Source of the DNA: a virus
Strand: one strand, 5' to 3'
IMG/VR virus record: IMGVR_UViG_3300006028_000013
Location: 1 to 58,419 of that record
Length of the DNA: 58,419 nt
In this document: piece after piece, positions 4,557 through 22,152 of the stretch
Layout of the letters: every line of letters begins with the position of its first letter
Position numbering within the stretch: position 1 is the first letter of the stretch
Position numbers and translations under genes: made by a program
The notes under the pieces: model-generated
Database searches by the model: none
What the model was told of the DNA's origin: nothing
What the model saw: only the letters and a program-made list of their open reading frames with translations

Positions 4557-4962
4557 GTGTCCTTGGCTAGGCAAGCCGGGGTATGGCGCGGCATGGCAGG
4601 CGTGGCTTGGCCCGGTGCGGCTTGGTAGGTTTGTGTGTGGCAGGGCATGGCAGGCATGGTTCGGCTAGGCTCGTCAGTGCAAGGCTCGTCTTGGTGCGTT
4701 AGGGCGCGGTTTGGCAGGCAGGGCGGGGTTCGGTAAGGCGTGTTTAGGTGCGGCTCGGCTTGTTTCGGCATGGCAGGCAAGGCCCGGTCTGGCGCGGTAC
4801 GGCGTTGGTCTGGCGGGTCGTGGCAAGGCAGGCGAGGCTCGGCAAGGAACGCTGGGCGCGGCGCGGCGCGGCGCGGCGCGCCTGGCTTGGCAGGGCGTGG
4901 TTCGGTCTGGTTGGGCAAGGTACGGCGCGGCGCGGCGCGGCGCGGCGCGGCAGGCGTGCGAA
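4557..4962 (+). repeat. Degenerate pentanucleotide (GGCNN)n tract
   Basis: About 400 bases without a convincing gene, built from roughly eighty units of GGCNN (for example GGCAT, GGCAG, GGCTT, GGCGC), with two purer (GGCGC)n runs near 4860-4880 and 4925-4951. The strand is very G-rich and A-poor. Because GG pairs recur every five bases, the top strand or its RNA could fold as chains of two-layer G-quadruplexes. Long open frames here are artefacts of the period. It lies between two rightward genes and is probably transcribed with them. Confidence 0.9.
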
Positions 4963-6876: not shown

Positions 6877-7080
6877 ATGAGCAGGGTTACAGCATGGGTG
6901 GTGACTTGCGAGCAGGAGTTCGCGGATCACTGGCGACTGGTCGGTGCCTTCGACGACATCGAGGAAGCCAGGCGTTGCCTAGCGAAGACGCCTGACGGTG
7001 TGCTTTATGAGTGCGACGGTGAAGACTGCGAACAGATCGCGCCGAAGAACTACAACGCCGTCCAGCGTGGCGGCGTGTAG
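6877..7080 (+). CDS. Small protein antisense to the head operon
   Basis: 67 residues from the ATG at 6877. The sequence looks like a compact folded domain (WVVTCEQEFADHWRLVGAFDD, then an acidic YECDGEDCEQ segment). It starts just upstream of the portal gene on the opposite strand, and its last 31 bases overlap the end of the large terminase gene. No family recognised. Confidence 0.5.
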   Translation: MSRVTAWVVTCEQEFADHWRLVGAFDDIEEARRCLAKTPDGVLYECDGEDCEQIAPKNYNAVQRGGV

Positions 7081-8851: not shown

Positions 8852-10012
8852 TCAGTTTGCGAGCGTTGCAGTCTTGCCGGTGAGCTTCTGCCAGCGGTTC
8901 ACGATGACGTCGCAGTAGCCGGGGTCGATCTCCATCAGGTAGGCGGTGCGGTTGGCTTGCTCGGCCGCGATCAGCGTGGAGCCTGAGCCACCGAAGAGGT
9001 CGAGGACATCCGATCCAGATTCGCTACTGTTTGCCAGCGTGCGCGCAATAAGGGCAGTCGGCTTCTGTGCCCCATGCAGCCGTTGCACGGTGAAGTTTTC
9101 GGCTTTGATTTGCCAGACATCAGGCTCATCGCGCGGGACCTTTCGTCGCGTCTCGCCCCACGAGCCAAACATCAGGAGTTCGTAGCGGAAGCGGTATTGT
9201 GACCCGGCTTTGATCCAGTCGTAGTCCCACACGATGACATTCGTAAGCCCATAGCGCGCCACGTCCTCGAAGATGAGCGGGTACGTTCGCCAGTCGGTCG
9301 CGATATACCAGTGCGCGCCCGACTCAATTGCGGTCGCCATGCAGACGAGCCAGTCGCGGAAGAACGGGCGCAGGATCTTTAGATCGGACAGGCTGCTTTG
9401 AATGCCAGTCGTGGATACGCCAACGGCATAAGGCGGGTCGCAATAAGCCATCTGCGCCTTGCGACCGTCCATCAGCCGCTCGACGTCGGTGAGGTTGGTC
9501 GAGTCGCCGCACAGCAATCGGTGCTCGTCCAGTAGCCACAGGTCGCCGGGTTTTGTGATCGGCTCAGACGGAGGCTCAAGGTCGGCCGCGTCCTCTTGGG
9601 GGACCTGCGTCACGCTGTTGAGTAGACGGTCGAGCTCCAGCGAGTCGAAGCCCAGCAGGTCGATATCGCTGCCCGCGTCCTTCAACTCGGCCAGCAGATG
9701 CCCGAGATCATCCTCGACCCACATCCCCCATGCACCATTGTCTTTAAGAGCCCGTTCCTTGGCGAGTTGCTCGGGGATGTCGCTCAACTCGGCGGGGACA
9801 TCCTTCCAGCCAAGATGCTGCACCGCGCGATAGCGCTGATTACCCCCATAGATGACCCCTGCCGTTGTGGCAAGGACAGGGCGCAACTCCAATAAGCCGG
9901 GATCTGCTTGGATGGAATCGCAGAGGTTCTTAAACCGCGCTGACCTGATCTCGCGGGGATTCCAAGGAGCTGGCGTGAGACGGTCCAGTCTCACTCGTTC
10001 GACGCGCGGCAT
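8852..10012 (-). CDS. ParB-like domain fused to a DNA methyltransferase
   Basis: About 386 residues from the ATG at 10012; a GTG start 6 bases further up is also possible. Residues 1-100 form a ParB/Srx-like domain (LTPAPWNPREIRSARF, then GGNQRYRAVQHLGW). The C-terminal ~220 residues are a beta-class methyltransferase: a CGDSTNL segment, the catalytic DPPY, and the cofactor loop DLFGGSGST near the end. It should methylate adenine N6 or cytosine N4. This fusion is common in phages, where it is thought to protect DNA or mark packaging sites. No cognate nuclease is nearby. It overlaps the preceding HNH gene. Confidence 0.88.
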   Translation of the reverse strand: MPRVERVRLDRLTPAPWNPREIRSARFKNLCDSIQADPGLLELRPVLATTAGVIYGGNQRYRAVQHLGWKDVPAELSDIPEQLAKERALKDNGAWGMWVEDDLGHLLAELKDAGSDIDLLGFDSLELDRLLNSVTQVPQEDAADLEPPSEPITKPGDLWLLDEHRLLCGDSTNLTDVERLMDGRKAQMAYCDPPYAVGVSTTGIQSSLSDLKILRPFFRDWLVCMATAIESGAHWYIATDWRTYPLIFEDVARYGLTNVIVWDYDWIKAGSQYRFRYELLMFGSWGETRRKVPRDEPDVWQIKAENFTVQRLHGAQKPTALIARTLANSSESGSDVLDLFGGSGSTLIAAEQANRTAYLMEIDPGYCDVIVNRWQKLTGKTATLAN

Positions 10013-10595
10013 ATTCACGACGCCGAATACCCGCACAGATTAGGCAGCCGTAGCGATTGAATGTTTCGGGTGTCCGCGGGTGACCATTGCGACAGGTCGT
10101 CGCTATTGGTGGCACCCAATCGAGCGGTCGTCCCTGTTTGACGAGCCACGCCTCGCGAGCGCGCGTCTGATTGCACGCTCGGCATTGCCGGCCCTCCTGC
10201 GTTTCGTAGACGTTGTCGCCACTTAGCAGGTGAGCACGAACGCAGCGCGTCTTGGCAGCGTTGATTGCAGTAGGGCCGCGGCCAATCAGAACGTTCTCGG
10301 TGAACGTCACCGGCTCTAAATGTGAGAGGTCCAAGCACCGCCGGTGCCGACAGCGAGGACCGCCCGGACATGTCTTGTCCTTGGTGTGGCAGCGATGATC
10401 CAGGTGTTCGTTCGGGCTGAGCGGACGCACTGCGTAGATGTAGAGCGCGCGATGCAGCCGCTCTGTTTTCCCGCTGATGCAGATCGTGGCATAGCCCCCT
10501 GAGTCGACGCCTTCGCGCCACTCCAAGCAGCCGTTCGATAAGCGTGTTGTATGCTGCGCGACATGTTCGGGGAGCGGCGGTCGGCGCTTCGGCAT
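9930..10595 (-). CDS. HNH homing-type endonuclease
   Basis: 221 residues. An HNH core with an H.ALYIYAVRPLSPNEHLDHRC pattern followed by a C/H-rich loop and LDLSHLEPVT (about residues 50-115) matches the HNH_3 type of free-standing phage nucleases. The C terminus carries two further Cys pairs (CRACN, then CRNGH...CLIC), probably zinc ribbons for DNA recognition. Its tail overlaps the methyltransferase gene by about 80 bases. It lies near the packaging genes, a frequent place for such selfish genes. Confidence 0.8.
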   Translation of the reverse strand: MPKRRPPLPEHVAQHTTRLSNGCLEWREGVDSGGYATICISGKTERLHRALYIYAVRPLSPNEHLDHRCHTKDKTCPGGPRCRHRRCLDLSHLEPVTFTENVLIGRGPTAINAAKTRCVRAHLLSGDNVYETQEGRQCRACNQTRAREAWLVKQGRPLDWVPPIATTCRNGHPRTPETFNRYGCLICAGIRRREYAARRTSETGPSHASSLESPRDQVSAV

Positions 10596-10643
10596 GTGCC
10601 GATGTTACCACTATGCCGCCGTAAGTCGCGCCATCGTTCGATC

Positions 10644-10895
10644 TCATGCCTGGGCCGGCGTGTACTTGGTCACCAGCTCGTCGAAGACCTTTTGCGCCGT
10701 CAGGCTCGCCGCGCGGGCCGTCTTTGCATACGCCTTGACCGTCGGCTTGACCGCGCCCTTTGAATCCATCGCCAATTCAACCGACGACTGGCCGATGCTC
10801 AGTTCGTAGACCGCGGCTGTCAGCAACGCCGCCGCCGCATCGTTCGGCACTAGCTTTTTTGGCCGACCCGCGCCGACTCGTGCTCCGCCTCTCAT
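10644..10895 (-). CDS. Small basic protein with GAGRPKK motif
   Basis: 83 residues starting with RGGARVGAGRPKK, a flexible basic N terminus found in many phage small-terminase and DNA-binding proteins. The rest is an Ala-rich helical stretch. It lies a few hundred bases before the terminase genes on the same strand, so a packaging or DNA-binding role is plausible but unproven. Confidence 0.6.
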   Translation of the reverse strand: MRGGARVGAGRPKKLVPNDAAAALLTAAVYELSIGQSSVELAMDSKGAVKPTVKAYAKTARAASLTAQKVFDELVTKYTPAQA

Positions 10896-11010
10896 AACGA
10901 ATCGTTTGATTCCCCCATCTGATGCATCTGAAATGCTGATGACTTAGGATTGCGATGAGCGTGTTGACGTCACACGCGACGCACATTTGCGTAAAGGAGG
11001 GCACCACCCG

Positions 11011-11499
11011 ATGCCGAGAGGAATTGCTGGATCGGGACGAACCGCTACCCGCACGACGCGGACGCGATCCTCGACCAGTACGCGAGCCCGCTCACCATCG
11101 TCGTCGTCGACGGCGCAGCAGATCATCTGGTCTGGCGCCTCGCTCGACGGCCAGCACCTGTTTCAACTCGTGAAGTCAGGCATGGTCTGGCAGCTCTACG
11201 AGCTCAATTTCACGGGTGCCAACGCGGCCAGCCGGCGCATGGTCACGACGCAATCCATGTTCATGGAGGCGTTCGCCGCCATCGGCTCGCAGTACGCGCT
11301 GCTGATGAATGCCATTCCGAGTAGTCGGCTGGCGAATCGCTCAGTCCGCGCGAGCGCTGCTAACGCGATCCCCGGCGCAATCGTCGCTGCGCAGCCTGCC
11401 ATCGCTGTCGCCGCCAAGCCCAGTGCCAGCGCCACCAGGCGCGTGCGCCGGCGCGTCAGCGTCAATCGGAGCACTCCCGCCACCGTCAGCGCCGTCTAG
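11011..11499 (+). pseudogene. Unknown rightward gene with two apparent compensating frameshifts
   Basis: An ATG at 11011 follows AAGGAGG by 10 bases and its frame is open to 11499. However, between about 11022 and 11140 this frame encodes low-complexity Thr/Ser/Arg. A neighbouring frame there, with no start of its own, reads like a real protein (CWIGTNRYPHDADAILDQYA, then LTIVVVDGAADHLVW) and has the GC-rich third positions typical of this genome. After 11140 the original frame looks real again (LDGQHLFQLVKSGMVWQLYE), ending in an Ala/Arg-rich tail. A -1 shift near 11022 and a +1 shift near 11145 would give one continuous ~160-residue protein. Product unknown. Confidence 0.6.
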
Positions 11500-11796
11500 G
11501 CCCGCAGGGCCCGCGGGTTGACTGTGGAGATGGCTCAGCCAGTCGCTGAGGTGCTTCACGAGCAGCCCGCGGTCGCTCATGTAGAGGGTTTCGTTCGAGA
11601 CGAAGTAGCGCGGGTAGCCCGCCCCACCTTCGGCGGTCGCCCAGTCACAGCCAGGGCAGACGTGGGCGTGCTCATCTAAGTGGACGACGTACGCAAACCA
11701 TACGTGCACTTCCGCGGACACGCGGCATTTTGCCTCGGCACACGATGATTTAAGCATCGCCGCGGCGAGCAGGTCGGTGAGCATCTCGTCATCCAC
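11341..11796 (-). CDS. Unknown protein with Gly/Ala-rich tail
   Basis: 151 residues. The N-terminal ~100 look like a folded domain with several Cys/His (HAHVCPGCDW near residue 45, a possible partial zinc site). The tail is rich in Gly, Ala and Asp, with a collagen-like PAGPAG start. The tail region is antisense to the end of the gene at 11011, so its true length is uncertain. No family recognised. Confidence 0.6.
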   Translation of the reverse strand: MDDEMLTDLLAAAMLKSSCAEAKCRVSAEVHVWFAYVVHLDEHAHVCPGCDWATAEGGAGYPRYFVSNETLYMSDRGLLVKHLSDWLSHLHSQPAGPAGLDGADGGGSAPIDADAPAHAPGGAGTGLGGDSDGRLRSDDCAGDRVSSARAD

Positions 11797-11868
11797 GCAC
11801 CCTAACCGTAGGCATGCGCCCTCTTGACATGCGCGGTTCGACCCTGAACAGGCGACCTATGTAGGGGG

Positions 11869-12078
11869 TCAGTAGCCAACCAGCCGCACGGCGGCCATCG
11901 TTCGGTTGTCGGCGTGCGTCTTGAGCATGATTGCCGTCATGTGGTGCTTGATCGTCTGCGTCTCGACGCCCAGTAGCCTGGCGATCGACTTGTTGGGCAG
12001 GCCACCGATCAGGAGCCGCGCCACGTCCCGCTCGCGCGGCGTCAGATGGAACTCGGGCGCGTCATAGAGCACCATCAC
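11869..12078 (-). CDS. Stand-alone LuxR/GerE-type DNA-binding domain
   Basis: 69 residues consisting of a LuxR-type helix-turn-helix: FHLTPRERDVARLL, then NKSIARLLGVETQTIKHH. There is no receiver or ligand domain. It probably acts as a simple transcription factor. Its start overlaps the stop of the upstream gene (ATGA), making a small regulatory operon with the genes upstream. Confidence 0.85.
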   Translation of the reverse strand: MMVLYDAPEFHLTPRERDVARLLIGGLPNKSIARLLGVETQTIKHHMTAIMLKTHADNRTMAAVRLVGY

Positions 12079-12305
12079 GTGATCAGCACGTCGGCGATGT
12101 CGAGCACCTCCCGCTCAAGCGCCGCGAGTTGCCGGCTGATATCCGCACACATGCTCACGATCGCGTTGAGCTGCAACACGGCCAGCGCCATGCGCTCTCG
12201 ATCCTGGTCGGCGCGTTCGCCGCATCGCACGGCATACCGATGGGCGGCCGCGCCGCTGGCGCGCATGCGCTCGATCTCTGAGGTAAGGCTGATTGGCTCG
12301 GGCAT
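12075..12305 (-). CDS. Small helical protein of unknown function
   Basis: 76 residues, almost entirely predicted helix, with heptad-like spacing towards the end (ISRQLAALEREVLDIADVL). It overlaps the LuxR-type gene by four bases, so the two are probably translated together and might interact. No family recognised. Confidence 0.6.
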   Translation of the reverse strand: MPEPISLTSEIERMRASGAAAHRYAVRCGERADQDRERMALAVLQLNAIVSMCADISRQLAALEREVLDIADVLIT

Positions 12306-12320
12306 TGAGAGCCTCCGTGT

Positions 12321-12863
12321 TCACAGGCGATCGACCGATGCCCTGAGTCGCTCGGGCATCGCGATCGCGTAAATCTGCGTCGTTGCCACCGAGCTATGGC
12401 CAAGCAAGTCCTTGATTTCGAGCAGGTCCGCACCCTGGTACAGCAGGTTGCTCGCGAACGAATGCCGCAGCTTGTGCGGCGTCACGTGGCGCACGATGTC
12501 GGCGCGCTCGGCGGCGGCGCTGATCATGAGTTGCACGGCGCGCGGCGTCAGGTGCCCTGATCGGCCGCGGCGCGACGGAAACACCCAGCCCTGGCGCCGG
12601 CCGTCGAGGTGCACGCGCATGCTCGCGGCGATGCGGCGGTGCATCGGGATATTGCGGTCCTTGTCGCCCTTCCCGGCGTGGACCTCGAGCATGCCGTCCT
12701 CGAAGTCGACGTGCTCAGCCTGCAGACAGACGATCTCGGAAATGCGAAGTCCCGCGTAGGCGCCGACGAGCAGCAGCAAGCGGTCGCGCGGCGTCGGCGC
12801 CTGATCGAAAAGCCGCTCGAGCTCCTGTGGTCTGAGGAAGACGGGCAGTCTTCGTCGCGGCAT
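12321..12863 (-). CDS. Minimal tyrosine recombinase
   Basis: 180 residues. The catalytic domain is complete: Arg in GLRISE (about 40), Lys in the HAGKGDKDR turn, HKLRH (130-134), LLGHSS (156) and the nucleophile Tyr in TQIYAI (165). The N-terminal SAM-like arm/core-binding domain of ordinary integrases is missing, so the protein is about half the usual size. The ATG at 12863 shares its A with the stop of the upstream small gene. It may resolve dimers, invert DNA or act with the full-length integrase. Confidence 0.88.
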   Translation of the reverse strand: MPRRRLPVFLRPQELERLFDQAPTPRDRLLLLVGAYAGLRISEIVCLQAEHVDFEDGMLEVHAGKGDKDRNIPMHRRIAASMRVHLDGRRQGWVFPSRRGRSGHLTPRAVQLMISAAAERADIVRHVTPHKLRHSFASNLLYQGADLLEIKDLLGHSSVATTQIYAIAMPERLRASVDRL

Positions 12864-13033
12864 CAATCACTTCGCCATTTGATCGGAAGGCGAACTCGCG
12901 AGCGAGTACTTTTGCGAAGCGCGCGCGCGCACGCGAGCGTAATGCGATACATGAAGAGGCCAATGGCGAGGGTCGCGATTAGCTCAAGCGGCGTCGTCTG
13001 GTATGGCGTGACGAGCCAGTCGAGCGGGTTCAC
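12863..13033 (-). CDS. Small single-pass membrane protein
   Basis: 56 residues. The GTG start overlaps the stop of the upstream gene (GTGA) and its stop overlaps the recombinase start (TGATG), so it is probably a real coupled gene. A hydrophobic segment LELIATLAIGLFMYRITLA (about residues 16-34) can span the membrane, followed by a very basic tail. Function unknown. Confidence 0.6.
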   Translation of the reverse strand: MNPLDWLVTPYQTTPLELIATLAIGLFMYRITLACARALRKSTRSRVRLPIKWRSD

Positions 13034-13635
13034 GCGGCACGCTCGATGCGGTCACCGACGTGCTCGCCGTCGGTGTGGTCGAACCAACCGCGGCAGTCGA
13101 TGACCGGGCAGGCGTACCCTGGCGGGCCGCGCCGCGGGCAGATGTTCAACCCTCGCGCCACGATCTGGCGCATGCGTTCGTGCAGCTCGGCCTGCGTCTG
13201 ACCCTCGTCCTCCATGCTCATTTCGAGGATCTCGGTGCCGTCCATCTTGTGCGTCGGCGGCTTCCAGTGCAGCCGCAGCGCCATCTCGCGGATACCCCGG
13301 TGCCGCGCGCGGTCGACGAACCACCGGTTAGCCCCTGGAATGTGCTTGGCCACGCTGACCGCGGGATAGCCAGCCACGTAGTACTGCCAGATGACCTCGC
13401 GCACGACCGGCTCGAGCAGGCTCAGCGCCCAGTCGAGATCGGCCTGAATCGCGGCGCCCATCTCGAAGCCGCCCTCGGGTGTTTCACGTGGTAATCGCTG
13501 GCTGCCCGAGTCGTCGCTCGCGCCGCTGCCCGTCAGCCGCACCAGATCGTCGTAGCGCCAAAGCAGAAGTTTGACCCTGCCCGGTGAGTAGAAGCCGTCG
13601 CTGTCGATCGAGGATCTCAATCCCTGGTTACCCAT
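13030..13635 (-). CDS. Putative phage transcription regulator with zinc-binding tail
   Basis: 201 residues from the ATG at 13635, which follows AGGAG by 10 bases. Residues ~65-120 contain a sigma-region-4-like helical pattern (EPVVREVIWQYYVAGYPAVS, then a WFVDRARHRGIREMAL helix) similar to ArpU/antiterminator-type phage late regulators. The C terminus has CPRRG...CPVIDCRGWFDH, a probable zinc knuckle. It heads the operon containing the small membrane protein, the minimal recombinase and the LuxR-type protein. The late-regulator role is an inference. Confidence 0.6.
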   Translation of the reverse strand: MGNQGLRSSIDSDGFYSPGRVKLLLWRYDDLVRLTGSGASDDSGSQRLPRETPEGGFEMGAAIQADLDWALSLLEPVVREVIWQYYVAGYPAVSVAKHIPGANRWFVDRARHRGIREMALRLHWKPPTHKMDGTEILEMSMEDEGQTQAELHERMRQIVARGLNICPRRGPPGYACPVIDCRGWFDHTDGEHVGDRIERAA

Positions 13636-13657
13636 AGGTTGCGAGCTCCTGGCCCCC

Positions 13658-13713
13658 AAAAACGGGCACAAAAAAACCGCCGCTCAGGAGCACATTCGCT
13701 CGTGAGTCAGCGG
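13658..13713 (-). terminator. Leftward intrinsic terminator
   Basis: On the minus strand an imperfect GC-rich hairpin is followed by seven T, GTGCCCG and five more T. It ends leftward transcription from the genes upstream just before the regulator gene. The 20-base tail (13658-13677) recurs exactly at 30925-30944. Confidence 0.7.
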
Positions 13714-13748
13714 CTCAGCCGGCCGTTTCGGTAATTACAGTCTACTCG

Positions 13749-14036
13749 CTATAGCTCGTCGCGCGTGCCGTGCGTCGATGAAGGCGTCACGCCCTCGTGC
13801 GCGAATCGCTCCTTCACCTCAGCCTGGTAGGACGTCGGACCGAAGTCGAACAGCACGTGCCCGGTCCGCATTCCCTCGATCTGCGGCCGATGGTCGAGCA
13901 TCCACGCGATCAGCTTGGCGATGCGGCCGTTCACGGTCACCGCGTGCGTCGAATTGATGTTGGCAGGCCCGTCGTTCGGCAGGATCACCACGACGGCATA
14001 CGGCTCGGGCAGGTCACTCAGACGCGACGGGGCCAT
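13749..14036 (-). CDS. Unknown small protein
   Basis: 95 residues, mixed composition with an N-terminal beta-like stretch (YAVVVILPNDGPANI) and a helical middle. No family recognised. It is the last gene before a terminator and so may be the end of the secretion-like operon or a separate unit. Confidence 0.6.
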   Translation of the reverse strand: MAPSRLSDLPEPYAVVVILPNDGPANINSTHAVTVNGRIAKLIAWMLDHRPQIEGMRTGHVLFDFGPTSYQAEVKERFAHEGVTPSSTHGTRDEL

Positions 14037-14063
14037 CCGACCCTGAGATTTTAACGGCGATTG

Positions 14064-14354
14064 TCACCTAGCCTTGCGCTGTTCGCGCATGACGCGCAAA
14101 TCCCGCAGCACCAGAACGGCTCGTTCATCATCCATCTCAAGGCGCTCCTTGAGCCAGCGCATGAGCACCTCGTCTGTCTCGGCTGCAGTAGCGGTCTGGA
14201 GTAAGTCTGCGGCGACGGACCGCGCCTCCTCCGGCGTCAGATAGACCGCTTTCCGATCACCGACTGTAAGCCCGACTAGACCCTTTCTGGTTCGTGCGCC
14301 GAAGATCGAGTGACACCAGATCGTGGTCTCTTGGCCAGATTCCGTCTCGGGCAC
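14064..14354 (-). CDS. Unknown small helical protein
   Basis: 96 residues. The middle has a VYLTPEEARSVAADLL stretch of a kind seen in many actinobacterial and phage hypotheticals, followed by charged helices ending RKAR. No function can be assigned. Confidence 0.6.
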   Translation of the reverse strand: MPETESGQETTIWCHSIFGARTRKGLVGLTVGDRKAVYLTPEEARSVAADLLQTATAAETDEVLMRWLKERLEMDDERAVLVLRDLRVMREQRKAR

Positions 14355-14377
14355 GGCTCACACCAAAGGCACCAGTT

Positions 14378-14542
14378 TCACAGGAACAGGGCGATGCCGA
14401 CGACGAGCATGGCGCCCCAGAACAGTTTGGGGTCCCACGGGACCACGCCGAGCAGGCCGAGTACAGCCAGGACGATCAGCACGACACCGATGACCCACCC
14501 GAGATAGCGGGTCTGGAAGGCTACAGCCGGCGGTGAGGACAT
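14378..14542 (-). CDS. Small two-pass membrane protein
   Basis: 54 residues from an ATG at 14542. Two hydrophobic segments (about residues 14-33 and 40-54) are separated by a short PWDPK turn. It directly follows the VirD4-like gene and may be an accessory membrane subunit of the secretion-like module. Not recognised. Confidence 0.6.
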   Translation of the reverse strand: MSSPPAVAFQTRYLGWVIGVVLIVLAVLGLLGVVPWDPKLFWGAMLVVGIALFL

Positions 14543-14592
14543 GGGGAGCAGTGACCTCCGTTCCTGCTCCGCGACTGTAACACTGTGATGCG

Positions 14593-16254
14593 TTAGTGAC
14601 CTCGCACGCGACCGCGGTAGCTCCACCTGTCCTTGCTGTTGTCGCCACGCGTCAGCAGTCGCAGATGCACCAGCTTCGAGCAATCCTTGTTGACGCACAC
14701 GCCACGCAGATGATCGACCGTCTGAGTCGTCCCGTCAGGGTTCCGTGGGATCGCTCCATACGCCATCTCCCACCTCACCCGGTGCACCTTCTGCCAGCGA
14801 CCATCCAACCAGACCAGCCCGTACCCATCCTTGTCGTGCTTGCCGCCCCAGCGCTCACAGCTTCCCTCGGGATAGATGCTCACCAGTAGCTTCTGCAGAA
14901 TCGCACTCGGCGGCGGCAGCATCTTCGGGCCAGAGTGCTCCCACACCACGGGTTCGACCTGCTCCCACTGCGGCTCCTCGACTATCGTCCAGCGCGGCAC
15001 CATCCGCGTTTCGCCATCCGACAGATCCGTCCGTTCGCCTTCCACTACGCCATCCGTCGCGGATGGGCGCGATTCCGACGGCTTGGGGAAGTGCACCAGA
15101 CGGCGCACCTTGCCGTCGTGCTCGACCCACGCGTGGTAATCGGGGATGCCGTCAACCTCGCTCTCCGAGAGGTCCAGTGCTTTCGCCACCTTCGCGCGCT
15201 GCTCAGGTTTGTTCGGGCGGAAGTACACCCGCGTCGCACTGTTCGTCGCCATCGCATCGTCTGCATCCTCTTCGGCGTGCACCAACGCGTCGACTGCAAT
15301 CAAGCGGCGCCTGCCCGCGGCAAAGAATGGATCAGCCAGGTCGATGCGCTCGCCGAGTTGGTCGGCTTCCTCGAAGATGAGACGGAAGCCGCCGGGCACG
15401 AGATCGCCGACGCGCTTCGCCTCGGCCAATCCGAACGCTACCGTGTCGCCGCACAGTCCTGGGTGCTTCCATCGATCGTTGTCGATGACCACGCCCTTAC
15501 CCGCGCGCAGCAACTCGGCGATGTCGACGCCACCCGAGGCTACGCTCGGTCCCATGGCCATTGCGGTCGACATGAACCGCGTGATCCACCCTTCGCACGC
15601 CATCTTGAGTCGACGATTGGTCTCGACGAGCTCCTCGACGCCAGCACCGATTGCCTGCAGCGAGCGCGGCTCGCGCGCTTGGTCTAAGTCGCGGATGACC
15701 CGTGTCGCGGCTTCGCGCGCGGCCATCATCCATACACCATTGCCGCCACTACGGAAAACCGTAGTCAGCCGTTCGGCGACATCCTCGGGCGTGCCCTTGA
15801 GAAAGTCGATTGGCATCTGCGATTCGCCTGCGGTCCAGATGAAGTCCGCGCGCCGGCGCAGCGGGTCTGACACGTCGGGCATAACCGCGAGCCACGGACG
15901 TGCGCCATCGCAACGCACCGTCGCCACACTCTCGCTCTTGCCGGCTCCCGTCGGCCCAGGCCACAGCGCGTGTGAGCGCTTGCCCGTGCGGTCGATCACC
16001 AGTCCGTCGACGCGCATCACGTCGCGCGGCGGTCGCACCTTCCAGTATTGACGCCGCCACCATGCGGTGTTCTTCGCGCGGCGTATGGGTTTATCGACGA
16101 TGCGCCGCGGAGTTGTGGTGTGATGCGCGCCTGGTCGCCACACGAGCATGAGGAACAGTCCGAACACCAACAGACCCACGGCGATGTGGATCTGGTCAGT
16201 CTGCGCGAGCCACCAGGCGTACGCGTCAGTCGCGGAGAGGGTTGGCCATTTCAA
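14593..16254 (-). CDS. VirD4/TraG-like ATPase fused to a C-terminal HNH domain
   Basis: 553 residues. A membrane segment (about 24-39) is followed by a basic linker, a Walker A motif GPTGAGKS (100-107) and a Walker B region RLIFEEAD (291-298), the layout of type IV coupling proteins that feed DNA or protein to a secretion channel. The last ~100 residues are a different domain: DKDGYGLVWLDGRW, HRVRWEMAYGAIP, then TVDHL...CVNKDC...HLRLLTR, which is the HNH_3 nuclease pattern. The gene overlaps the VirB4 gene by four bases. The fusion could make a nicking or cutting coupling protein, or be a captured homing domain. Confidence 0.82.
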   Translation of the reverse strand: MKWPTLSATDAYAWWLAQTDQIHIAVGLLVFGLFLMLVWRPGAHHTTTPRRIVDKPIRRAKNTAWWRRQYWKVRPPRDVMRVDGLVIDRTGKRSHALWPGPTGAGKSESVATVRCDGARPWLAVMPDVSDPLRRRADFIWTAGESQMPIDFLKGTPEDVAERLTTVFRSGGNGVWMMAAREAATRVIRDLDQAREPRSLQAIGAGVEELVETNRRLKMACEGWITRFMSTAMAMGPSVASGGVDIAELLRAGKGVVIDNDRWKHPGLCGDTVAFGLAEAKRVGDLVPGGFRLIFEEADQLGERIDLADPFFAAGRRRLIAVDALVHAEEDADDAMATNSATRVYFRPNKPEQRAKVAKALDLSESEVDGIPDYHAWVEHDGKVRRLVHFPKPSESRPSATDGVVEGERTDLSDGETRMVPRWTIVEEPQWEQVEPVVWEHSGPKMLPPPSAILQKLLVSIYPEGSCERWGGKHDKDGYGLVWLDGRWQKVHRVRWEMAYGAIPRNPDGTTQTVDHLRGVCVNKDCSKLVHLRLLTRGDNSKDRWSYRGRVRGH

Positions 16255-17909
16255 GGAGCCACCACAACAACAGCGCCGCTCCCACGATCAGCCAGATGCT
16301 CACCTTCACGACCTTCATCGCTACCGTTCCCGCTATCAACAACGCGAACATCTCGCACCTTCTCCCTCGGGTCCGTGGTGATGGCCCGGTGCTCGTCAGG
16401 CGATGCCTGAATATCCGTTGGTATCAGTAGACCACCACAGTCAAGCAGCGCCTGACCGCGCGCTGCGCTGCGTAAGAATCGACGCGCGGGCGCCGGCAGA
16501 CCCACGGCATTGCACAGCTTGTCGAGATCGTTGTCATGCTGCTTCAGGTAGACGCGTATCGCGGCGTTGTTCAGCACGGCCAGGCCGCCGTCAGAATCGA
16601 GCATCTCTTTGACCTGCTGCGTCGCGATCCACAGACTCAAATAGTGGTGTCGTCCGATGCGCGCGATCTCTTCGATCAGACTTGCCAGTTCAGGATTCCG
16701 GAGTAGTGACCACAGCTCGTCGAGAATGAGTAGTCGCGGTTTAGGATCACTTTTCGCCACAGCCCACAACTCGGACACGAAGTCACGAAGCCGAGACGCC
16801 CGCTCAGCGTAGGGTATGTCTGCCAGATTGAAGGATCGTGCTCCGGCGACGCTGGCGTATTCGGCTGGGGTGCGTTGCTCAACGATCAATACCTCCACGC
16901 CGTGCAGACGGCGGCATAGCAGTTTGAGCAGGAACGATTTACCCATCCCGACCTTGGCGAGCACGATGCCGCCGAACGACTCGAGCGACGGGTCGAACGG
17001 ATCGAGGCGCACCAGCATGCTGCCGTCATGCGTCGTACCCAGCTCGGCACCATTCACATGGTTGACGGTTGCCGGCTGAAACATCCACGTCGAGGCGGTC
17101 GACGTGCAGTCGAGCGTGCGATACGCGCCGAGCAACTCGCAGCGGCCAGTGGGTAATGTCGCCGCGAGTCCGCGGTCCTGCTCGTACTTCGCGAGGCGCA
17201 CATCGGCCAGGGCAAGGCCGATCTCGTGGCGCAGCGTGTCCGCGCGGTTCTTGAGCTGGTAGCGATCGCGGGCGTACACCGTGAGCACGACGGCAACTTT
17301 CACGGGCCGGTCCTGGCGGGCGATCATGCGCTCGCGCGTGTAGGCTGCGTCGCGTTTACCGAGTTTGTTAGCCGGGTCCTTGCCGCCGTCGTCCTGCCAG
17401 GTCTCCTGTCCCTTGAGCATGCGCGCGACGCGCTGCGCGTCCTGCGGGATGACGTGGATGGACGCGTCGACCGGCAGATCGCCGGCGAGTGCCTGGCCAA
17501 GCCACCCCGGCGCGACCTCGCGCGGCCAGCGCCGCAGCACTAGCGACGCGCACCATGCGCCATCGAGTCGTATGCCATCGGGTCGGACTTCCTGATTGTG
17601 CTCCTCATATGAGGCCGCGAAATCGGAAGTCCGTAGCCCGACACCTTCCAGCGCGTTCCTGAGCGTGCGCGTGCGCCACTCGAGCGCGCCGCTGTCTTCC
17701 GCGGTGATCACCGCCAGCCAGCGCCGCTCAAGCAGCGGCGGCCTCGTCCAGTCGTGCTCAGTTGTTGTCGGGCGCGCCTGGGCTATGAGTTGCAGCGGAT
17801 GCGACAGCCCCATGAGCACTCGGGCCAGGGACTCCATTTGATCGCTGCGTTCGGCGACGCTGGCCACCGCGTAATTGGTTGTCGGGGTTAGCTCGAGCAC
17901 GCTGTGCAT
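16251..17909 (-). CDS. VirB4/TraC-like type IV secretion ATPase
   Basis: 552 residues, shorter than many VirB4 proteins but with both halves: an N-terminal domain with a VLELTPTTNYAVASVAERSD start and SHPLQLIAQAR, and a C-terminal motor with Walker A KVGMGKS (319-325) and Walker B LLILDE (393-398), plus a WIATQQVKEML arginine/Gln segment near 455. VirB4 energises pilus or channel assembly at the inner face of the membrane. Its ATG directly abuts the stop of the upstream VirB3/PrgI-like gene. Confidence 0.88.
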   Translation of the reverse strand: MHSVLELTPTTNYAVASVAERSDQMESLARVLMGLSHPLQLIAQARPTTTEHDWTRPPLLERRWLAVITAEDSGALEWRTRTLRNALEGVGLRTSDFAASYEEHNQEVRPDGIRLDGAWCASLVLRRWPREVAPGWLGQALAGDLPVDASIHVIPQDAQRVARMLKGQETWQDDGGKDPANKLGKRDAAYTRERMIARQDRPVKVAVVLTVYARDRYQLKNRADTLRHEIGLALADVRLAKYEQDRGLAATLPTGRCELLGAYRTLDCTSTASTWMFQPATVNHVNGAELGTTHDGSMLVRLDPFDPSLESFGGIVLAKVGMGKSFLLKLLCRRLHGVEVLIVEQRTPAEYASVAGARSFNLADIPYAERASRLRDFVSELWAVAKSDPKPRLLILDELWSLLRNPELASLIEEIARIGRHHYLSLWIATQQVKEMLDSDGGLAVLNNAAIRVYLKQHDNDLDKLCNAVGLPAPARRFLRSAARGQALLDCGGLLIPTDIQASPDEHRAITTDPREKVRDVRVVDSGNGSDEGREGEHLADRGSGAVVVVAP

Positions 17910-18027
17910 TCAGGACCTGCTCAAGAAGGGCACATGCTTGCTGAGTCGGCGTACGCCACTGACGGTCGGCCATCTCAGCCAGGGTAGCCTTGTTCTCGTC
18001 GCGGATCGTAACCGTGAGTTCTTCCAT
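17758..18027 (-). CDS. Possible nested ribbon-helix-helix protein
   Basis: A frame of 89 residues overlaps the 3' end of the PrgI-like gene and the 5' end of the VirB4 gene. Its first ~45 residues (ELTVTIRDENKATLAEMADR, then TPTQQACALLEQVLN) look like a genuine ribbon-helix-helix domain, and a GGGAGAACG ribosome site precedes the ATG. In the same stretch the PrgI-like frame is basic and unconvincing. It may be an operon autoregulator. Either it is a dual-coded gene or the larger gene has a shifted end. Confidence 0.5.
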   Translation of the reverse strand: MEELTVTIRDENKATLAEMADRQWRTPTQQACALLEQVLNAQRARANPDNQLRGGQRRRTQRSNGVPGPSAHGAVASAATHSPGAPDNN

Positions 18028-18389
18028 CGTTCTCCCAGTGCGTGTGTGATCGGCGGCCACTGCGCCACCTTGAAGAAATGCCAGTAGGCAAGCAGCCATT
18101 CGTGAGCTCGGCGCAGGCCGAGTTTGCTGCGCAGACCCGCGGCGACGGCACCGATGTACGGCACGTCGGCCGCGGGCTCGCCGGTGAGCGTGAAGACTGC
18201 GACGATCGCGAACAGCGGCAGCGTGTACCAGAGCGCAATGCCGCCGATGTGCAGTGGCCCGAAATCCTTCGGTACTGCCAGCCACCATATGAGCAGGCCC
18301 GCGCCGAACAGAACGGCCAGATCGACGAAACCGTCTGACCGCTCGAGTTCGGTCGGGACCGTAACGGTGACCGGCGGCTGGTCGCTCAT
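17910..18389 (-). CDS. VirB3/PrgI-like inner membrane protein
   Basis: 159 residues. A short N terminus with a VTVTVPTELERSD start leads into two membrane segments (about 23-40 and 50-67) and a cytoplasmic tail with a GLRRAHEWLLAYWHFFKVA stretch. This topology just upstream of VirB4 is typical of VirB3/PrgI proteins of minimal (Gram-positive type) secretion systems. The last ~40 residues are basic and overlap a nested frame, so the C terminus is uncertain. The family call rests on context and topology. Confidence 0.65.
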   Translation of the reverse strand: MSDQPPVTVTVPTELERSDGFVDLAVLFGAGLLIWWLAVPKDFGPLHIGGIALWYTLPLFAIVAVFTLTGEPAADVPYIGAVAAGLRSKLGLRRAHEWLLAYWHFFKVAQWPPITHALGERWKNSRLRSATRTRLPWLRWPTVSGVRRLSKHVPFLSRS

Positions 18390-18595
18390 GCGTGAATAGC
18401 CGCTCCCACGGTCATGCTCGTGAGCATCACGGCCGTACCAATTAGCGCGCAGATGATGCCTTCTTTACCGCGCTGGTGATTGCCGAGCGCCATGATGCCG
18501 CCGGCGATCAGCAGTGCGAAGCCCGCGATGACCGGCACCAATGTGAGCGCTTGCGTCAGGATCGCTGTAAGAAGTCCGAGTAGCGGTGCGAGCAT
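18386..18595 (-). CDS. VirB2/TrbC-like pilin candidate
   Basis: 69 residues with two long hydrophobic helices (about 4-33 and 47-66) joined by a short polar loop NHQRGKEG. Size, topology and position before the VirB3-like and VirB4 genes fit a VirB2-type pilin. There is no clear signal peptide cleavage site. A holin-like or other small channel protein is the alternative. Confidence 0.6.
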   Translation of the reverse strand: MLAPLLGLLTAILTQALTLVPVIAGFALLIAGGIMALGNHQRGKEGIICALIGTAVMLTSMTVGAAIHA

Positions 18596-18597
18596 CC

Positions 18598-18696
18598 TTA
18601 TCTCCAGATATCCAGTAGCCGGGCAATCATGACGATCCCGGCTACGTCAGCCGTGATCAGTGCAACCACGAACGTCAGCGATAGATACCTCCTCAT
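18598..18696 (-). CDS. 32-residue membrane peptide in the secretion-like operon
   Basis: The ATG overlaps the stop of the VirB1-like gene (ATGA) and the TAA is two bases before the pilin-like start. The product is a short peptide with one hydrophobic helix (SLTFVVALITADVAGIVMIA) flanked by Arg. A GAGG sequence inside its start region could also serve as its ribosome site. Coupling on both sides supports it as a real small subunit. Confidence 0.5.
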   Translation of the reverse strand: MRRYLSLTFVVALITADVAGIVMIARLLDIWR

Positions 18697-19253
18697 CGCG
18701 CCACCGCACGCGCGCGTGCCAGGTCACTTGCCCAGTTCGGTGCGCCAGGCAATCCACCGCACCCGCCGGGATACGTACACCATTGCGTCCATCCGCCGCG
18801 GCGGTAGAGCACCAGTGCGGCGCGCGCATTGTTGATGGGCACACACAGCGCAGCGTTGCCGCCGAACTCGGCCCAGTGCGCGCTATTAATTTGCCAAAGT
18901 CCCAAGTCGAACGAGCCGTTGTTGTTGCGGCCGGACATGGCGCAGGGATCGCCGCCCCCGTCCTCTGCAATGCTGATTGCCGTGGCGGTAATCGCCTCGT
19001 CGTGCGAGAAGCCGGCCTCGAGCGCTAACACGAACCGCTGCGCGTCACTCACCAGGGGTTGCGGACCCGCGGACGGTCCGGTCACGACCGGCACGATGGC
19101 GATGGCACCGAGCGGCAGGCTGTCCACCGATGTCGGCAGCGTCGTGCCGTCGTGCTTGCCAAACCAGAATGGCGCCCAGGCTTGCTCGTGCATGCCCATG
19201 ATCGGTGCCATGAACACCACGGCGAGCAGCAGGACGGCAATCGCGCGGATCAC
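18693..19253 (-). CDS. VirB1-like lytic transglycosylase
   Basis: 186 residues. An N-terminal hydrophobic segment (about 3-20) acts as a signal or anchor. The lysozyme-like domain has SIAEDGGGDPCAM with the catalytic Glu near residue 96, a loop of three Asn, and DLGLWQINSAHW, the SLT/C-type lysozyme signature. Several Cys (CAM, CVP, WCTY, GGCGG) could form disulfides outside the cell. It would open peptidoglycan for the secretion channel. It sits between VirB6-like and pilin-like genes. Confidence 0.85.
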   Translation of the reverse strand: MIRAIAVLLLAVVFMAPIMGMHEQAWAPFWFGKHDGTTLPTSVDSLPLGAIAIVPVVTGPSAGPQPLVSDAQRFVLALEAGFSHDEAITATAISIAEDGGGDPCAMSGRNNNGSFDLGLWQINSAHWAEFGGNAALCVPINNARAALVLYRRGGWTQWCTYPGGCGGLPGAPNWASDLARARAVAR

Positions 19254-20230
19254 AGGCCGACCCTTCGACGGATGAGCATGATGGCCGCGGCCGCCATGCC
19301 ATGCCCACGTTCCTGGCCCGCGCCGCCACCGGCGATCAAGGTCTTCGGCAGATCGCGAATGAGCAGCAGCACCACGATGCTCAGCAAGGTGCCGATGATC
19401 CCGCTACCGCCGAGCGTCGCGAGCACCGACGCGACGCGCAGGCCGAGTACGACGAGGACCTGACCGAAGAGCAAACCAACGGAGAGACGCGTGTAGTGCT
19501 GCGCCAGGAATTCGGATTGCTCGGTGGCGTAGCACAGCAGCGCCAGCGAACCGACGGCGATCAGGATGTCGATCAGTCCGAGACGGAACAGCAGCGAGAA
19601 GATCAGCAGCAGCGCGACGATCGCGTACACGATGAGCAGCACCAGCGTCGTGAGCTCGCCGGACGGCATGAGCCCGATCGACTGCTGCGGCAGCAGGAGG
19701 TGCGGCTTGATCAGACTTGGCAGGTCTGGCGCACCGATCGACGTCGTGATCGCGTTGTTGAGACGGATGCCGATCTCCCACCACACGAGGTTGCCGATAC
19801 ACAGCACGACACCGAAGACGAGCCGGCCGTAGTTCATGCCCTGGCCGAGCGCGTGCTGCGCGCCCGCAGCGAAGATCGCCAGTGCCACCAGGCCGAGCGC
19901 GACATTGCGCAGCAGCTCCGCGAGGCTGCGAATGCTCGGGTTGTTCCACGACATGTCGTCGGGCGTGGTGCGCCAGACGTCCGGTAAGCCGAGCAGGTCG
20001 TTGGCGAACTGCACTGGTGGCGGCGCGACGACCGTCATCAGGATCGACTCGGACGACTGCACCGATGCGTCGGCGATGATCTGCGGATCGGGCGGTGGCG
20101 CCGTGACGGTGATCTCGTTGTGCACGGTCACGTTCTGCGGGCCGCCCGAGTTGGACGGCGGCGGCACGACGATGGGGTTACCTTCCTGAGCGATCAGGAG
20201 GCCCATAGCGACGAGCACCATACCGATCAC
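19250..20230 (-). CDS. VirB6/TrbL-like polytopic membrane protein
   Basis: 326 residues starting with GTG at 20230. A signal-like N terminus and a Pro-rich extracellular stretch are followed by six or so hydrophobic segments between residues ~100 and 310, including LALGLVALAIFAAG-like and LLIVYAIVALLLIFSLLF helices, and a basic end. This is the shape of VirB6/TrbL channel proteins. It is the first gene of the leftward secretion-like operon and its stop overlaps the VirB1-like start. Confidence 0.75.
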   Translation of the reverse strand: MIGMVLVAMGLLIAQEGNPIVVPPPSNSGGPQNVTVHNEITVTAPPPDPQIIADASVQSSESILMTVVAPPPVQFANDLLGLPDVWRTTPDDMSWNNPSIRSLAELLRNVALGLVALAIFAAGAQHALGQGMNYGRLVFGVVLCIGNLVWWEIGIRLNNAITTSIGAPDLPSLIKPHLLLPQQSIGLMPSGELTTLVLLIVYAIVALLLIFSLLFRLGLIDILIAVGSLALLCYATEQSEFLAQHYTRLSVGLLFGQVLVVLGLRVASVLATLGGSGIIGTLLSIVVLLLIRDLPKTLIAGGGAGQERGHGMAAAAIMLIRRRVGL

Positions 20231-20303
20231 TAGCGCTCACTATAGAGCACCGTTATACAGCCGTCTAGTGCTATAGAAATCCCTGTGTTACTCTGCGAAC
20301 ACG
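20231..20303. promoter_or_regulatory. Divergent promoter between secretion-like operon and small regulator
   Basis: The 73 bases are much richer in A/T than the flanks and hold an inverted repeat CTATAGAGCAC (20240-20250) and GTGCTATAG (20268-20276). On the minus strand TATAGT (20245-20240) is a good -10 element about 10 bases before the GTG of the VirB6-like gene, so its mRNA may be nearly leaderless. The repeat is a likely binding site for the regulator encoded at 20304. Confidence 0.6.
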
Positions 20304-20480
20304 GTGGATGATCCGCTCCTGACCGTCCGTCAGGTGGCGCAACAACTCCAGGTCGCAGAGATCACCGTCCGACGCTGGATCGCGACGGGCCGCATCAAGC
20401 GCGCGTCGAAGATCACCAGTCGCAGCGGCTGGCGCATCCCGCAGTCCGAGGTCGAGCGCTTGCTGCGCGAATCGTCATAG
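20304..20480 (+). CDS. MerR/excisionase-type DNA-binding protein
   Basis: 58 residues starting with GTG. It is a single winged-helix domain: LLTVRQVAQQLQVAEITVRR, WIATGRIKRA, then a WRIPQSEVERLL wing. This is the HTH_17/Xis pattern used by phage excisionases and small regulators. It is divergent from the secretion-like operon and converges with the integrase gene, overlapping its end by six bases. It may control excision, the secretion operon, or both. Confidence 0.85.
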   Translation: MDDPLLTVRQVAQQLQVAEITVRRWIATGRIKRASKITSRSGWRIPQSEVERLLRESS

Positions 20481-21452
20481 GCGCCAACGCGCACTGAGCG
20501 ACGCGACCTCCGCGGCTTCGACCTGCGACGGATCGGACCACGTGATGTAGTCGCTCAGCGTCGACCTGTCGAGGTGGCCGAGCCGCGAACGCAGTTGCAG
20601 CTCGGCGCCAGGTCGCTGCGCGAGGAAGGCGGAGGCATTCGTGTGCCGGCATTTATGAGGATGGGCGTCAGGCACACGCGCTGCGCGCCCGAACTCGGCG
20701 AACATCTCGCGCGCGCGGCGCGTCGACAACGGATAGCGCTCGCGCGTGGTGAACAGTGCGCTGACGCCGGGCCGCGCCTCGCGCACCTTCAGCCAGTTGC
20801 GTAACGCTGCGAGCGCGGGCCCACCGTCGCGCCGATCGCGCACGCGGAAGATGACGCGCCGCGGGTGTCCATTCTTCGTCGTGCAGAACGTGATCGAGCC
20901 TTCGGTCAGGTCGACGTCGGCGACGGTTGCCGCACAGAGCTCGCCAATGCGACAGCCAGTGTCGAACATCAGCAGCAACAGCGCGCGGTCGCGGATCGGG
21001 TTCGAGCCGGCCGACGCGGCCTGCACCAGGCGCCGCGCTTCGTCTTCGGTGAATGGTTTGCGGTGCAGCTTTTTCACGCGCGGGATCTTCAGTCGCGCCA
21101 GCGGGTCATTCGCGTACACATCGTTGTCGACGAGGAAGCGCGACCACGTCTTCAGCGTCATCACGCCCTGCTTCTCGGTCGCGACGCCGCCGCGGCGCCC
21201 GGTCGACTTGCCGCGCAGCCACGTCTGCCACTCGCGCACAAACTGCGGGTTCAGTGCGTCGAGGGTTGGCTGTACGTCGTGCTCGAGCAGGAACGTCAGG
21301 AACGAGTCCTGGTAGATGCGGTACAGACGCAGCGTCTGCGAGCTGCGATTGAGCCGTTCGAGCGCATGCCGATGAAACTCCGCACAGTCGATCAGATCCA
21401 CGGGCAATCCCCTTACCCCTAGCCGTGGACCGGTGCGGTGTGCAGTCGTCAC
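20475..21452 (-). CDS. int: Full-length tyrosine integrase
   Basis: 325 residues. The N-terminal SAM-like domain (about 20-125) is followed by a complete catalytic domain: Arg168 in GCRIGEL, Lys193, His266 and Arg269 in HKCRH, His293 in LGHLD and Tyr302 in LSDYITW. It should integrate the phage or module into a host site. The start could also be a slightly later codon. An adjacent palindromic intergenic region is a candidate attP. Confidence 0.93.
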   Translation of the reverse strand: MTTAHRTGPRLGVRGLPVDLIDCAEFHRHALERLNRSSQTLRLYRIYQDSFLTFLLEHDVQPTLDALNPQFVREWQTWLRGKSTGRRGGVATEKQGVMTLKTWSRFLVDNDVYANDPLARLKIPRVKKLHRKPFTEDEARRLVQAASAGSNPIRDRALLLLMFDTGCRIGELCAATVADVDLTEGSITFCTTKNGHPRRVIFRVRDRRDGGPALAALRNWLKVREARPGVSALFTTRERYPLSTRRAREMFAEFGRAARVPDAHPHKCRHTNASAFLAQRPGAELQLRSRLGHLDRSTLSDYITWSDPSQVEAAEVASLSARWRL

Positions 21453-21588: not shown

Positions 21589-22152
21589 TTAGGCGGCGCA
21601 GAGTGCGTTAGTGCGCGCGGGACGGTAGCCGAGCGGGTGCGTAAGCGTATGTTTGCTCCTTGCTAACGACTCCCCACCATCGCGGCGCGACTTGCGGCGG
21701 CGCGCAGGATGGTCGCTAACTGCGGCACTAACGGCGGCATCGCGTTCAGCATTAACGGCGGTCCTGATTTCGTCGATCAGGCGCAGGTTCGATTCGGCCT
21801 GGTTAGTTAGGTTCGTCCAGAAGAAATCCTCGTACTCGGGACCAACAGCGTCTGCCCAGCGCTCGAAGCGCTCGCGCACGGCCTGACGCCTGGCGTCGAT
21901 CTCGGCGCGCGGTTCGCGCGGCTTGCGATGGCCGGCCAACTCAAGGACGTAGTCGGGGTCGAGGTCGAGCGCGGCGGCGATCTTTTCGCATGACGCGGGA
22001 CTGGGCAGGATGCGCAGCGCCTCGTCTTCGGCGAGCCATTTGTAGGCGAGCTGCGCACTGACCTGACACTCGCGGGCGAAGTGGGGAATCGTCCAGCGCC
22101 GCTCCCTAAGCGCCGTCTTGAGGAAGTCGAACAGCATCGGAGGTGTGCTCAC
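21589..22152 (-). CDS. CI-like repressor
   Basis: 187 residues starting with GTG. The N-terminal ~70 residues form an XRE-type helix-turn-helix (WTIPHFARECQVSAQLAYKW, then CEKIAAALDLDPDYVLELAG). The middle is a charged helical region and the end is basic; no LexA-like protease domain was seen. It is divergent from a Cro-like gene with palindromic sites between, the layout of a lysogeny switch. It probably represses early transcription and its own gene. Confidence 0.82.
   Translation of the reverse strand: MSTPPMLFDFLKTALRERRWTIPHFARECQVSAQLAYKWLAEDEALRILPSPASCEKIAAALDLDPDYVLELAGHRKPREPRAEIDARRQAVRERFERWADAVGPEYEDFFWTNLTNQAESNLRLIDEIRTAVNAERDAAVSAAVSDHPARRRKSRRDGGESLARSKHTLTHPLGYRPARTNALCAA

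What the first reader, a model, noticed from the sequence alone, without database searches (positions are those of the whole stretch)
13749..20303. Minimal type IV secretion-like operon inside a siphophage genome
Six neighbouring leftward genes resemble VirB6/TrbL (19250), VirB1 (18693), a VirB2-type pilin (18386), VirB3/PrgI (17910), VirB4 (16251) and VirD4 (14593), overlapping or abutting like one operon. This is the core set of a monoderm-type conjugation machine. It is surrounded by a complete tailed-phage genome (terminase, portal, capsid, tape measure, tail) on both sides. No relaxase was seen. Conjugation-like transfer genes in tailed phages are not something I know of, so this could be a new phage-plasmid/ICE hybrid, a superinfection or host-interaction device, or a mobile cargo island.
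Basis: partly seen in the sequence, partly recalled or inferred. Interest (0 to 1): 0.92.

Follow-up and report, generated by a model that had tools for sequence, protein, structure and literature searches.

The report
Secretion-machine genes inside a tailed phage
A near-complete temperate tailed-phage genome from a metagenome carries its own compact operon for a bacterial DNA/protein export machine (a type IV secretion system of the conjugation kind) with a DNA-cutting domain fused to the motor, a combination seen in only one other phage in our searches (the giant phage G) and never explained.

Summary
VirB4 (16251-17909) is certain. The peptidoglycan hydrolase (18693-19253) is a lytic transglycosylase. 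The VirB6/TrbL-like (19250-20230) and VirD4-like (14593-16254) assignments rest on profile alignments that no shuffled control reached. The PrgI-like gene is only suggestive, and the VirB2-like 'pilin' is not supported. The module is interior to a circularly permuted phage genome (a sibling contig joins the window's ends), matches the phage in codon usage and composition, and ends in a terminator whose 20-nt tail recurs exactly at 30.9 kb. No second contig covers it, so chimerism is unlikely but not excluded. The only other tailed phage with such a module in our searches is Bacillus phage G (gp146-gp157); its VirB4 is the closest relative found, and both VirB4s lack the large Walker A-B insert. 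No relaxase or VirB8 was found, so it is not a demonstrated conjugative element. Most likely it is a relaxase-less, conjugation-derived translocation machine used in the lysogen or infected cell. Whether it moves DNA or protein is open.

The parts
19250..20230 (-). VirB6/TrbL-like polytopic membrane protein (326 aa, 5-6 TM), first gene of the operon
   Evidence: TrbL profile ranks it 1st of 85 genes, E=6.7e-5, 0/80 shuffles; TM prediction
18693..19253 (-). VirB1-like lytic transglycosylase (186 aa, N-terminal hydrophobic segment); overlaps the previous gene by 4 nt
   Evidence: PF18896 SLT_3 E=1.7e-15; separate from the phage endolysin (Amidase_2, 32930-33268)
18386..18595 (-). small two-TM protein (69 aa) in the VirB2 position; pilin identity not supported
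   Evidence: topology only; profile test negative
17910..18389 (-). PrgI/VirB3-like two-TM protein (159 aa), directly upstream of VirB4
   Evidence: N-terminal PrgI-like motif, E=0.028, 2/80 shuffles reach it; synteny
16251..17909 (-). VirB4-like ATPase (552 aa); N-terminal ~100 aa resembles the C-terminal domain of PrgI proteins; only 75 residues between Walker A and Walker B
14593..16254 (-). VirD4/T4CP-like ATPase (TM 21-39, Walker A GPTGAGKS, Walker B LIFEEAD) fused to a C-terminal HNH nuclease domain (residues ~460-545, VDH/CVN/VHL motif)
   Evidence: T4CP profile 1st of 85, E=1.2e-3, 0/80 shuffles; PHROG HNH E=9e-11, PF13392 above cut-off
14378..14542 (-). 54-aa single-TM protein, same operon, unknown
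   Evidence: gene call and TM
14064..14354 (-). 96-aa protein, phrog_23845 (unknown function), weak DUF6907
   Evidence: E=1.2e-12
13749..14036 (-). 95-aa protein, last gene of the operon, unknown
   Evidence: gene call; no family
13658..13725 (-). strong intrinsic terminator of the module; its 20-nt tail GTTTTTTTGTGCCCGTTTTT recurs exactly at 30925-30944 at the end of the late operon
20231..20303 (.). divergent control region between the T4SS operon and the HTH gene; weak promoter-like match and repeated CTATAG
   Evidence: sequence; promoter scan no better than chance
20304..20480 (+). HTH_17 (excisionase/MerR-like) small regulator, divergent from the operon
   Evidence: PF12728 E=1.3e-11
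20475..21452 (-). tyrosine integrase next to the module
   Evidence: PF00589 E=8e-26

Best explanation
It is a phage-encoded, relaxase-less, minimal type IV secretion-like operon of the monoderm conjugation lineage, resident in a temperate tailed phage. Shown: a VirB4 ATPase, a lytic transglycosylase, a TrbL-like membrane protein and a T4CP-like ATPase with a fused HNH domain lie in one leftward gene run that ends in a strong terminator. Inferred: it is expressed in the lysogen or infected cell, where the transglycosylase opens the wall, TrbL/PrgI-like proteins and VirB4 form an envelope channel, and the T4CP-HNH protein recruits and pumps a substrate. The HNH domain makes DNA that it cuts itself the more likely substrate, so the machine would be a second, contact-dependent way for phage or host DNA to leave the cell. 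Protein export remains possible.
For: VirB4 identity; SLT; TrbL-like and T4CP-like by profile with rank and shuffle controls; intact HNH motif; gene overlaps; own terminator sharing its tail with the phage late operon; interior position in a circularly permuted phage genome; composition and codon use like the phage; a parallel module in phage G including Replic_Relax, pilin, TrbL, VirB4 and T4CP; the phage has its own TerL and endolysin, so the module is not packaging or lysis.
Against: No relaxase and no VirB8 found; pilin unsupported and PrgI weak; VirB4 lacks the usual Walker A-B insert; HNH is not a relaxase type known to me; no second contig of this or a sibling phage covers the module; both AlphaFold models of the VirD4-like protein were useless (pLDDT 40 and 37).
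Confidence: 0.5

Rival explanations
1. A T4SS-derived protein-delivery or surface device carried by the prophage for the host's benefit (lysogenic conversion): co-opted and relaxase-less, as proposed for Patescibacteria.
For: Relaxase-less clusters are common in Patescibacteria and thought co-opted (PMC12102498); an Actinomycetota chromosome carries a similar pilin-TrbL-PrgI-short VirB4-SLT cluster with no T4CP among the neighbouring gene calls; small unknown genes follow virD4.
Against: No recognisable effector or toxin in the operon; the T4CP has a nuclease fused to it, odd for a protein exporter.
Confidence: 0.22
2. A superinfection-exclusion or defence complex: a membrane motor with an HNH nuclease that cuts incoming DNA.
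For: Motor plus nuclease resembles HerA-nuclease defence in principle; weak HerA hits to VirB4 in PADLOC; position next to the integrase and a regulator, typical of lysogenic genes.
Against: PADLOC E-values are weak and explained by the shared FtsK-HerA superfamily; a defence complex does not need TrbL and a transglycosylase.
Confidence: 0.13
3. Assembly chimera: a bacterial or ICE T4SS fragment joined to a phage contig.
For: No second contig covers 13.7-20.4 kb; most other records with VirB4-like hits in the phage collection are unannotated fragments or prophage-ICE composites.
Against: GC, GC3, tetranucleotides and codon use fit the phage; terminator tail shared exactly with the late operon, 0 expected by chance; two junctions would be needed; VirB4 is closest to another phage's.
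Confidence: 0.07
4. A decaying or recently acquired moron with no present function.
For: PrgI and pilin genes are poorly recognisable; no relaxase.
Against: All frames open, phage-like codon use, catalytic motifs of VirB4, T4CP, SLT and HNH intact by eye, compact overlaps, own terminator.
Confidence: 0.08

Closest known systems
Bacillus phage G gp146-gp157 (Donellivirus gee)
   Same: Tailed phage with TrbL (PF19597 1.8e-11), VirB4 (23.5% identity over 93%), a T4CP-like protein and an HNH gene next to it; VirB4 with the same N-terminal domain and the same 74-75 residue Walker A-B spacing
   Different: 497-kb jumbo phage; has Replic_Relax (4e-25) and a recognisable T4SS pilin; T4CP and HNH are separate genes; no transglycosylase seen in the cluster
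Monoderm conjugation machinery (MPF_FATA; CD1110-family VirB4, PrgI, TrbL, VirB1, T4CP) of Bacillota and Actinomycetota plasmids/ICEs
   Same: Same component classes and PrgI-VirB4 and VirB4-T4CP neighbourhood
   Different: No relaxase or VirB8 found; PrgI short; HNH fused to the T4CP; sits in a virus
Patescibacteria chromosomal T4SS (PMC12102498)
   Same: Monoderm type, relaxase usually absent, VirB4-centred
   Different: Cellular, with VirB2 pilin arrays; not in a phage
SPO1 gp27.4/gp27.3 and Geobacillus phage TP-84 (T4CP-like protein, with Replic_Relax in SPO1)
   Same: Tailed phages that encode a T4CP-like motor
   Different: No VirB4, TrbL or transglycosylase annotated beside it
Prophage-ICE composites, e.g. 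Streptococcus phage phi-SgaBSJ31_rum
   Same: T4SS genes in a record classed as a tailed phage
   Different: An ICE-like block with its own recombinase, resistance genes and SNF2 gene inside a 106-kb record, not a 6.5-kb operon inside the phage gene order

Membership tests
Type IV secretion system (VirB4-based) | VirB4-family ATPase | tested here: met
Type IV secretion system (VirB4-based) | VirB6/TrbL polytopic inner-membrane protein | tested here: met
   profile E=6.7e-5, 1st of 85, 0/80 shuffles; no Pfam/NCBIfam hit on its own
Type IV secretion system (VirB4-based) | VirB3/PrgI | tested here: inconclusive
   E=0.028, 2/80 shuffles
Type IV secretion system (VirB4-based) | VirB2/T4SS pilin | tested here: not met
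   18386-18595 not found by the pilin profile nor by Pfam PF18895/PF04956
Type IV secretion system (VirB4-based) | VirB1-type peptidoglycan hydrolase | tested here: met
   PF18896 E=1.7e-15
Type IV secretion system (VirB4-based) | VirB8-like bitopic protein | tested here: inconclusive
   no operon protein scanned has a Pfam or PHROG match to one; no dedicated VirB8 profile was run
Conjugative element (ICE/plasmid) | coupling protein (T4CP/VirD4) | tested here: met
   profile E=1.2e-3, 1st of 85, 0/80 shuffles, aligned Walker A/B; no single-library hit, structure model failed
Conjugative element (ICE/plasmid) | relaxase and oriT | tested here: not met
   PF13814 absent in the window; no relaxase family in the Pfam/PHROG scans run; oriT not searched
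Conjugative element (ICE/plasmid) | contact-dependent DNA transfer | not testable with these tools
   needs a lysogen and mating assay
Temperate tailed phage (Caudoviricetes) | terminase, portal, HK97-type capsid, tape measure, integrase | tested here: met
HerA-type defence systems | HerA with partner nuclease at family-level score | tested here: not met
   PADLOC: only weak hits to VirB4, none to the other five

The most novel reading that the evidence does not exclude
A temperate phage with two dispersal routes: virions, and contact-dependent transfer of its own genome through a phage-encoded channel, with a T4CP-HNH fusion replacing relaxase plus coupling protein (cut-and-pump in one protein, formally like a terminase).
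Probability: 0.2. Interest if true: 0.93.

Novelty: new variant of a known kind. Interest (0 to 1): 0.72.

Why it matters
Tailed phages and conjugative elements are treated as separate classes of mobile DNA that meet only as composites or helper pairs. A compact conjugation-type operon built into a phage's own gene order, with a counterpart in the unrelated giant phage G, suggests phages have recruited this machinery more than once or shared it. Phage G and its Bacillus megaterium host are culturable, so a function can be tested now. The T4CP-HNH fusion is a concrete, testable protein. It also shows a library mislabel: phrog_2666, called 'terminase large subunit', is the phage G VirB4 family.

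Tried and rejected
IMG/VR scans with VirB4, VirD4, TrbL, integrase and the 13030-13635 protein found no sibling carrying the module; the window+gp155 VirB4 alignment found only phage G. A genome-contig scan gave one weak Actinomycetota hit, used only as a centre for searches. The six-VirB4 alignment was not conserved enough for a scan. AlphaFold on the full VirD4-HNH protein (pLDDT 40) and on its ATPase domain with 6 sequences (pLDDT 37) failed, so no fold search was made. The VirB4 tree did not place the window protein (weak support). The Actinomycetota searches with the capsid and VirD4 proteins did not identify the host. Lack of the VirB4 Walker A-B insert was first thought phage-specific; the chromosomal G193 VirB4 also has a short insert and is placed with long-insert actinobacterial VirB4s, so it is not diagnostic. 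The idea that a packaging ATPase was mistaken for VirB4 was rejected because the phage has its own TerL. Rfam and tRNA scans were empty.

Full report
What the window is. The window is one IMG/VR record of 58,419 bases with no end repeats. It holds, leftward, a terminase large subunit (7050-8528), portal (5355-6836), protease (1627-3297) and major capsid protein (6-1475), and further right a tape measure (48357-50633) and a neck protein. It has two tyrosine recombinases (12321-12863, 20475-21452), a transcriptional-regulator-like gene (21589-22137), a Rad52-type annealing protein and an Amidase_2 endolysin. Contig L007, from another metagenome, runs portal-protease-capsid and then straight into genes found at the window's right end, down to 52.5 kb. 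The window is therefore a circularly permuted, near-complete genome, and 13.7-20.3 kb lies inside it, not at a prophage-host border. L005 and L006 (IMG/VR, other metagenomes) cover 0 to about 12.9 kb with 81-92% DNA identity over most of the aligned stretches, but no contig covers the module.

What the module is. VirB4 (16251-17909) is beyond doubt: NCBIfam CD1110-family VirB4 2.5e-25, solved VirB4 structures 4ag5/4ag6 2e-10, plasmid VirB4s, and a VirB4 profile made without it scoring 332 against at most 29 for any other window gene. The 18693-19253 product is a lytic transglycosylase with an N-terminal hydrophobic segment (PF18896 1.7e-15). For the others I built profiles from TrbL, PrgI, pilin and T4CP proteins of other clusters, ranked all 85 predicted window genes, and compared with shuffles that keep local composition. 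The 19250-20230 protein is the best TrbL match (40.8, next 17.4, shuffle maximum 24.5). The 14593-16254 protein is the best T4CP match (36.8, next 23.3, shuffle maximum 25.8), co-linear from Walker A to the end of the ATPase core. The 17910-18389 protein is only suggestive as PrgI, and the 69-aa protein at 18386-18595 is not recognised as a pilin. These E-values come from single comparisons with small profiles; the rank and shuffle controls carry the weight.

New details. The VirD4-like protein ends in an HNH nuclease domain (PHROG 9e-11; PF13392 above its cut-off) with VDH, CVN and VHL in order; coding signal is continuous through the junction. The first ~110 residues of VirB4 match the C-terminal domain of PrgI proteins (23.7 against shuffle maximum 16.9). 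The same N-terminal extension aligns in phage G gp155, whose PrgI-like neighbour gp154 is short too. Only 75 residues separate Walker A and B (74 in gp155, about 200-260 in most plasmid and ICE VirB4s measured, 96 in the chromosomal G193 protein).

Is it part of this phage? GC (0.645) and GC3 (0.783) of the module equal those of the rest, and tetranucleotide distance is not raised. A codon model trained only outside the module picks the right frame for all nine operon genes. The operon ends in a strong hairpin (-32 kcal/mol, z -2.9) followed by GTTTTTTTGTGCCCGTTTTT; the same 20 nt follow a different hairpin (z -6.6) at 30.92-30.99 kb, at the end of the leftward late operon, and shuffled sequences never contain this pattern. 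A chimera is therefore unlikely, but reads were not available.

Relatives. In 50,697 phage records the best full-length VirB4 relative is Bacillus phage G gp155. Around it lie a Replic_Relax protein (gp146, 4e-25), a T4SS pilin (gp150), TrbL (gp153, 1.8e-11), a short PrgI-like protein (gp154, by position and size only), a T4CP-like protein (gp156) and an HNH gene (gp157). The phage G record notes only 'type IV secretory pathway protein; VirB-like'. I found no paper that treats it: several literature searches and a look in the jumbo-phage review PMC7824862, which does not mention type IV secretion or VirB, gave nothing. The library lacks most subscription papers, so this is not proof of absence. 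SPO1 and other Bacillus phages carry a T4CP-like gene, with a Replic_Relax partner in SPO1 (the SPO1 partner is called by its record's annotation, which matches that of phage G gp146). Streptococcus phage records with VirB4 contain an ICE-like block. A 62-aa pilin-TrbL-PrgI-VirB4-transglycosylase cluster without phage genes occurs on a chromosome in the Actinomycetota search set.

How it may work. Shown: parts, order, operon end, motifs. Inferred: membrane channel (TrbL-like, PrgI-like, VirB4), wall opening by the transglycosylase, substrate loading by the T4CP-HNH protein. A T4CP implies a docked substrate, and the fused nuclease makes DNA the likelier one; the missing relaxase could be replaced by HNH nicking. 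Protein delivery (as suggested for relaxase-less Patescibacteria systems, PMC12102498) and DNA degradation at the membrane (superinfection exclusion) remain open. The defining features of a conjugative element (relaxase, oriT, transfer) are unmet or untested, so I call it T4SS-like and conjugation-derived, not conjugative.

Limits. Host unknown; related phages with similar terminase or portal infect diverse bacteria. Structure prediction failed. No second natural copy of this exact module was found.

Noticed in passing
PHROG library; window 16251-17909; phage G gp155 (L002:11980-13629): phrog_2666, labelled 'terminase large subunit', matches phage G gp155 at E=1e-273; it is a VirB4 family, so automatic phage annotation will mislabel such genes.
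   Followed up: yes
L047 (SPO1 27.3/27.4), L048 (TP-84), L002 gp146/gp156: Several tailed Bacillus/Geobacillus phages encode a T4CP-like motor, paired with a Replic_Relax-type protein in SPO1 and phage G; function unknown.
   Followed up: partly
window 12321-12863 and 20475-21452: Two tyrosine recombinases flank the T4SS region; the 180-aa one is only a catalytic domain and has a 46% identical counterpart in L005 in the same gene order.
   Followed up: partly
window 4589-4958: Degenerate GC-rich direct repeats (GGCATGGCAGGC-like, 6 copies, plus a 35-nt pair) in a stretch between genes; possible replication, packaging or regulatory site.
   Followed up: no
window 43190-45067: Rightward RCC1-repeat (beta-propeller) protein lying among leftward tail/late genes.
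   Followed up: no
window 9000-19000: GC skew turns negative from about 9 kb to 19 kb while leftward genes elsewhere have positive skew; cause unknown.
   Followed up: no
window 55128-57109 and L007, L036, L037: Glycosyltransferase-like genes inside the head gene cluster, in varying order among siblings; family assignment is by eye only.
   Followed up: no
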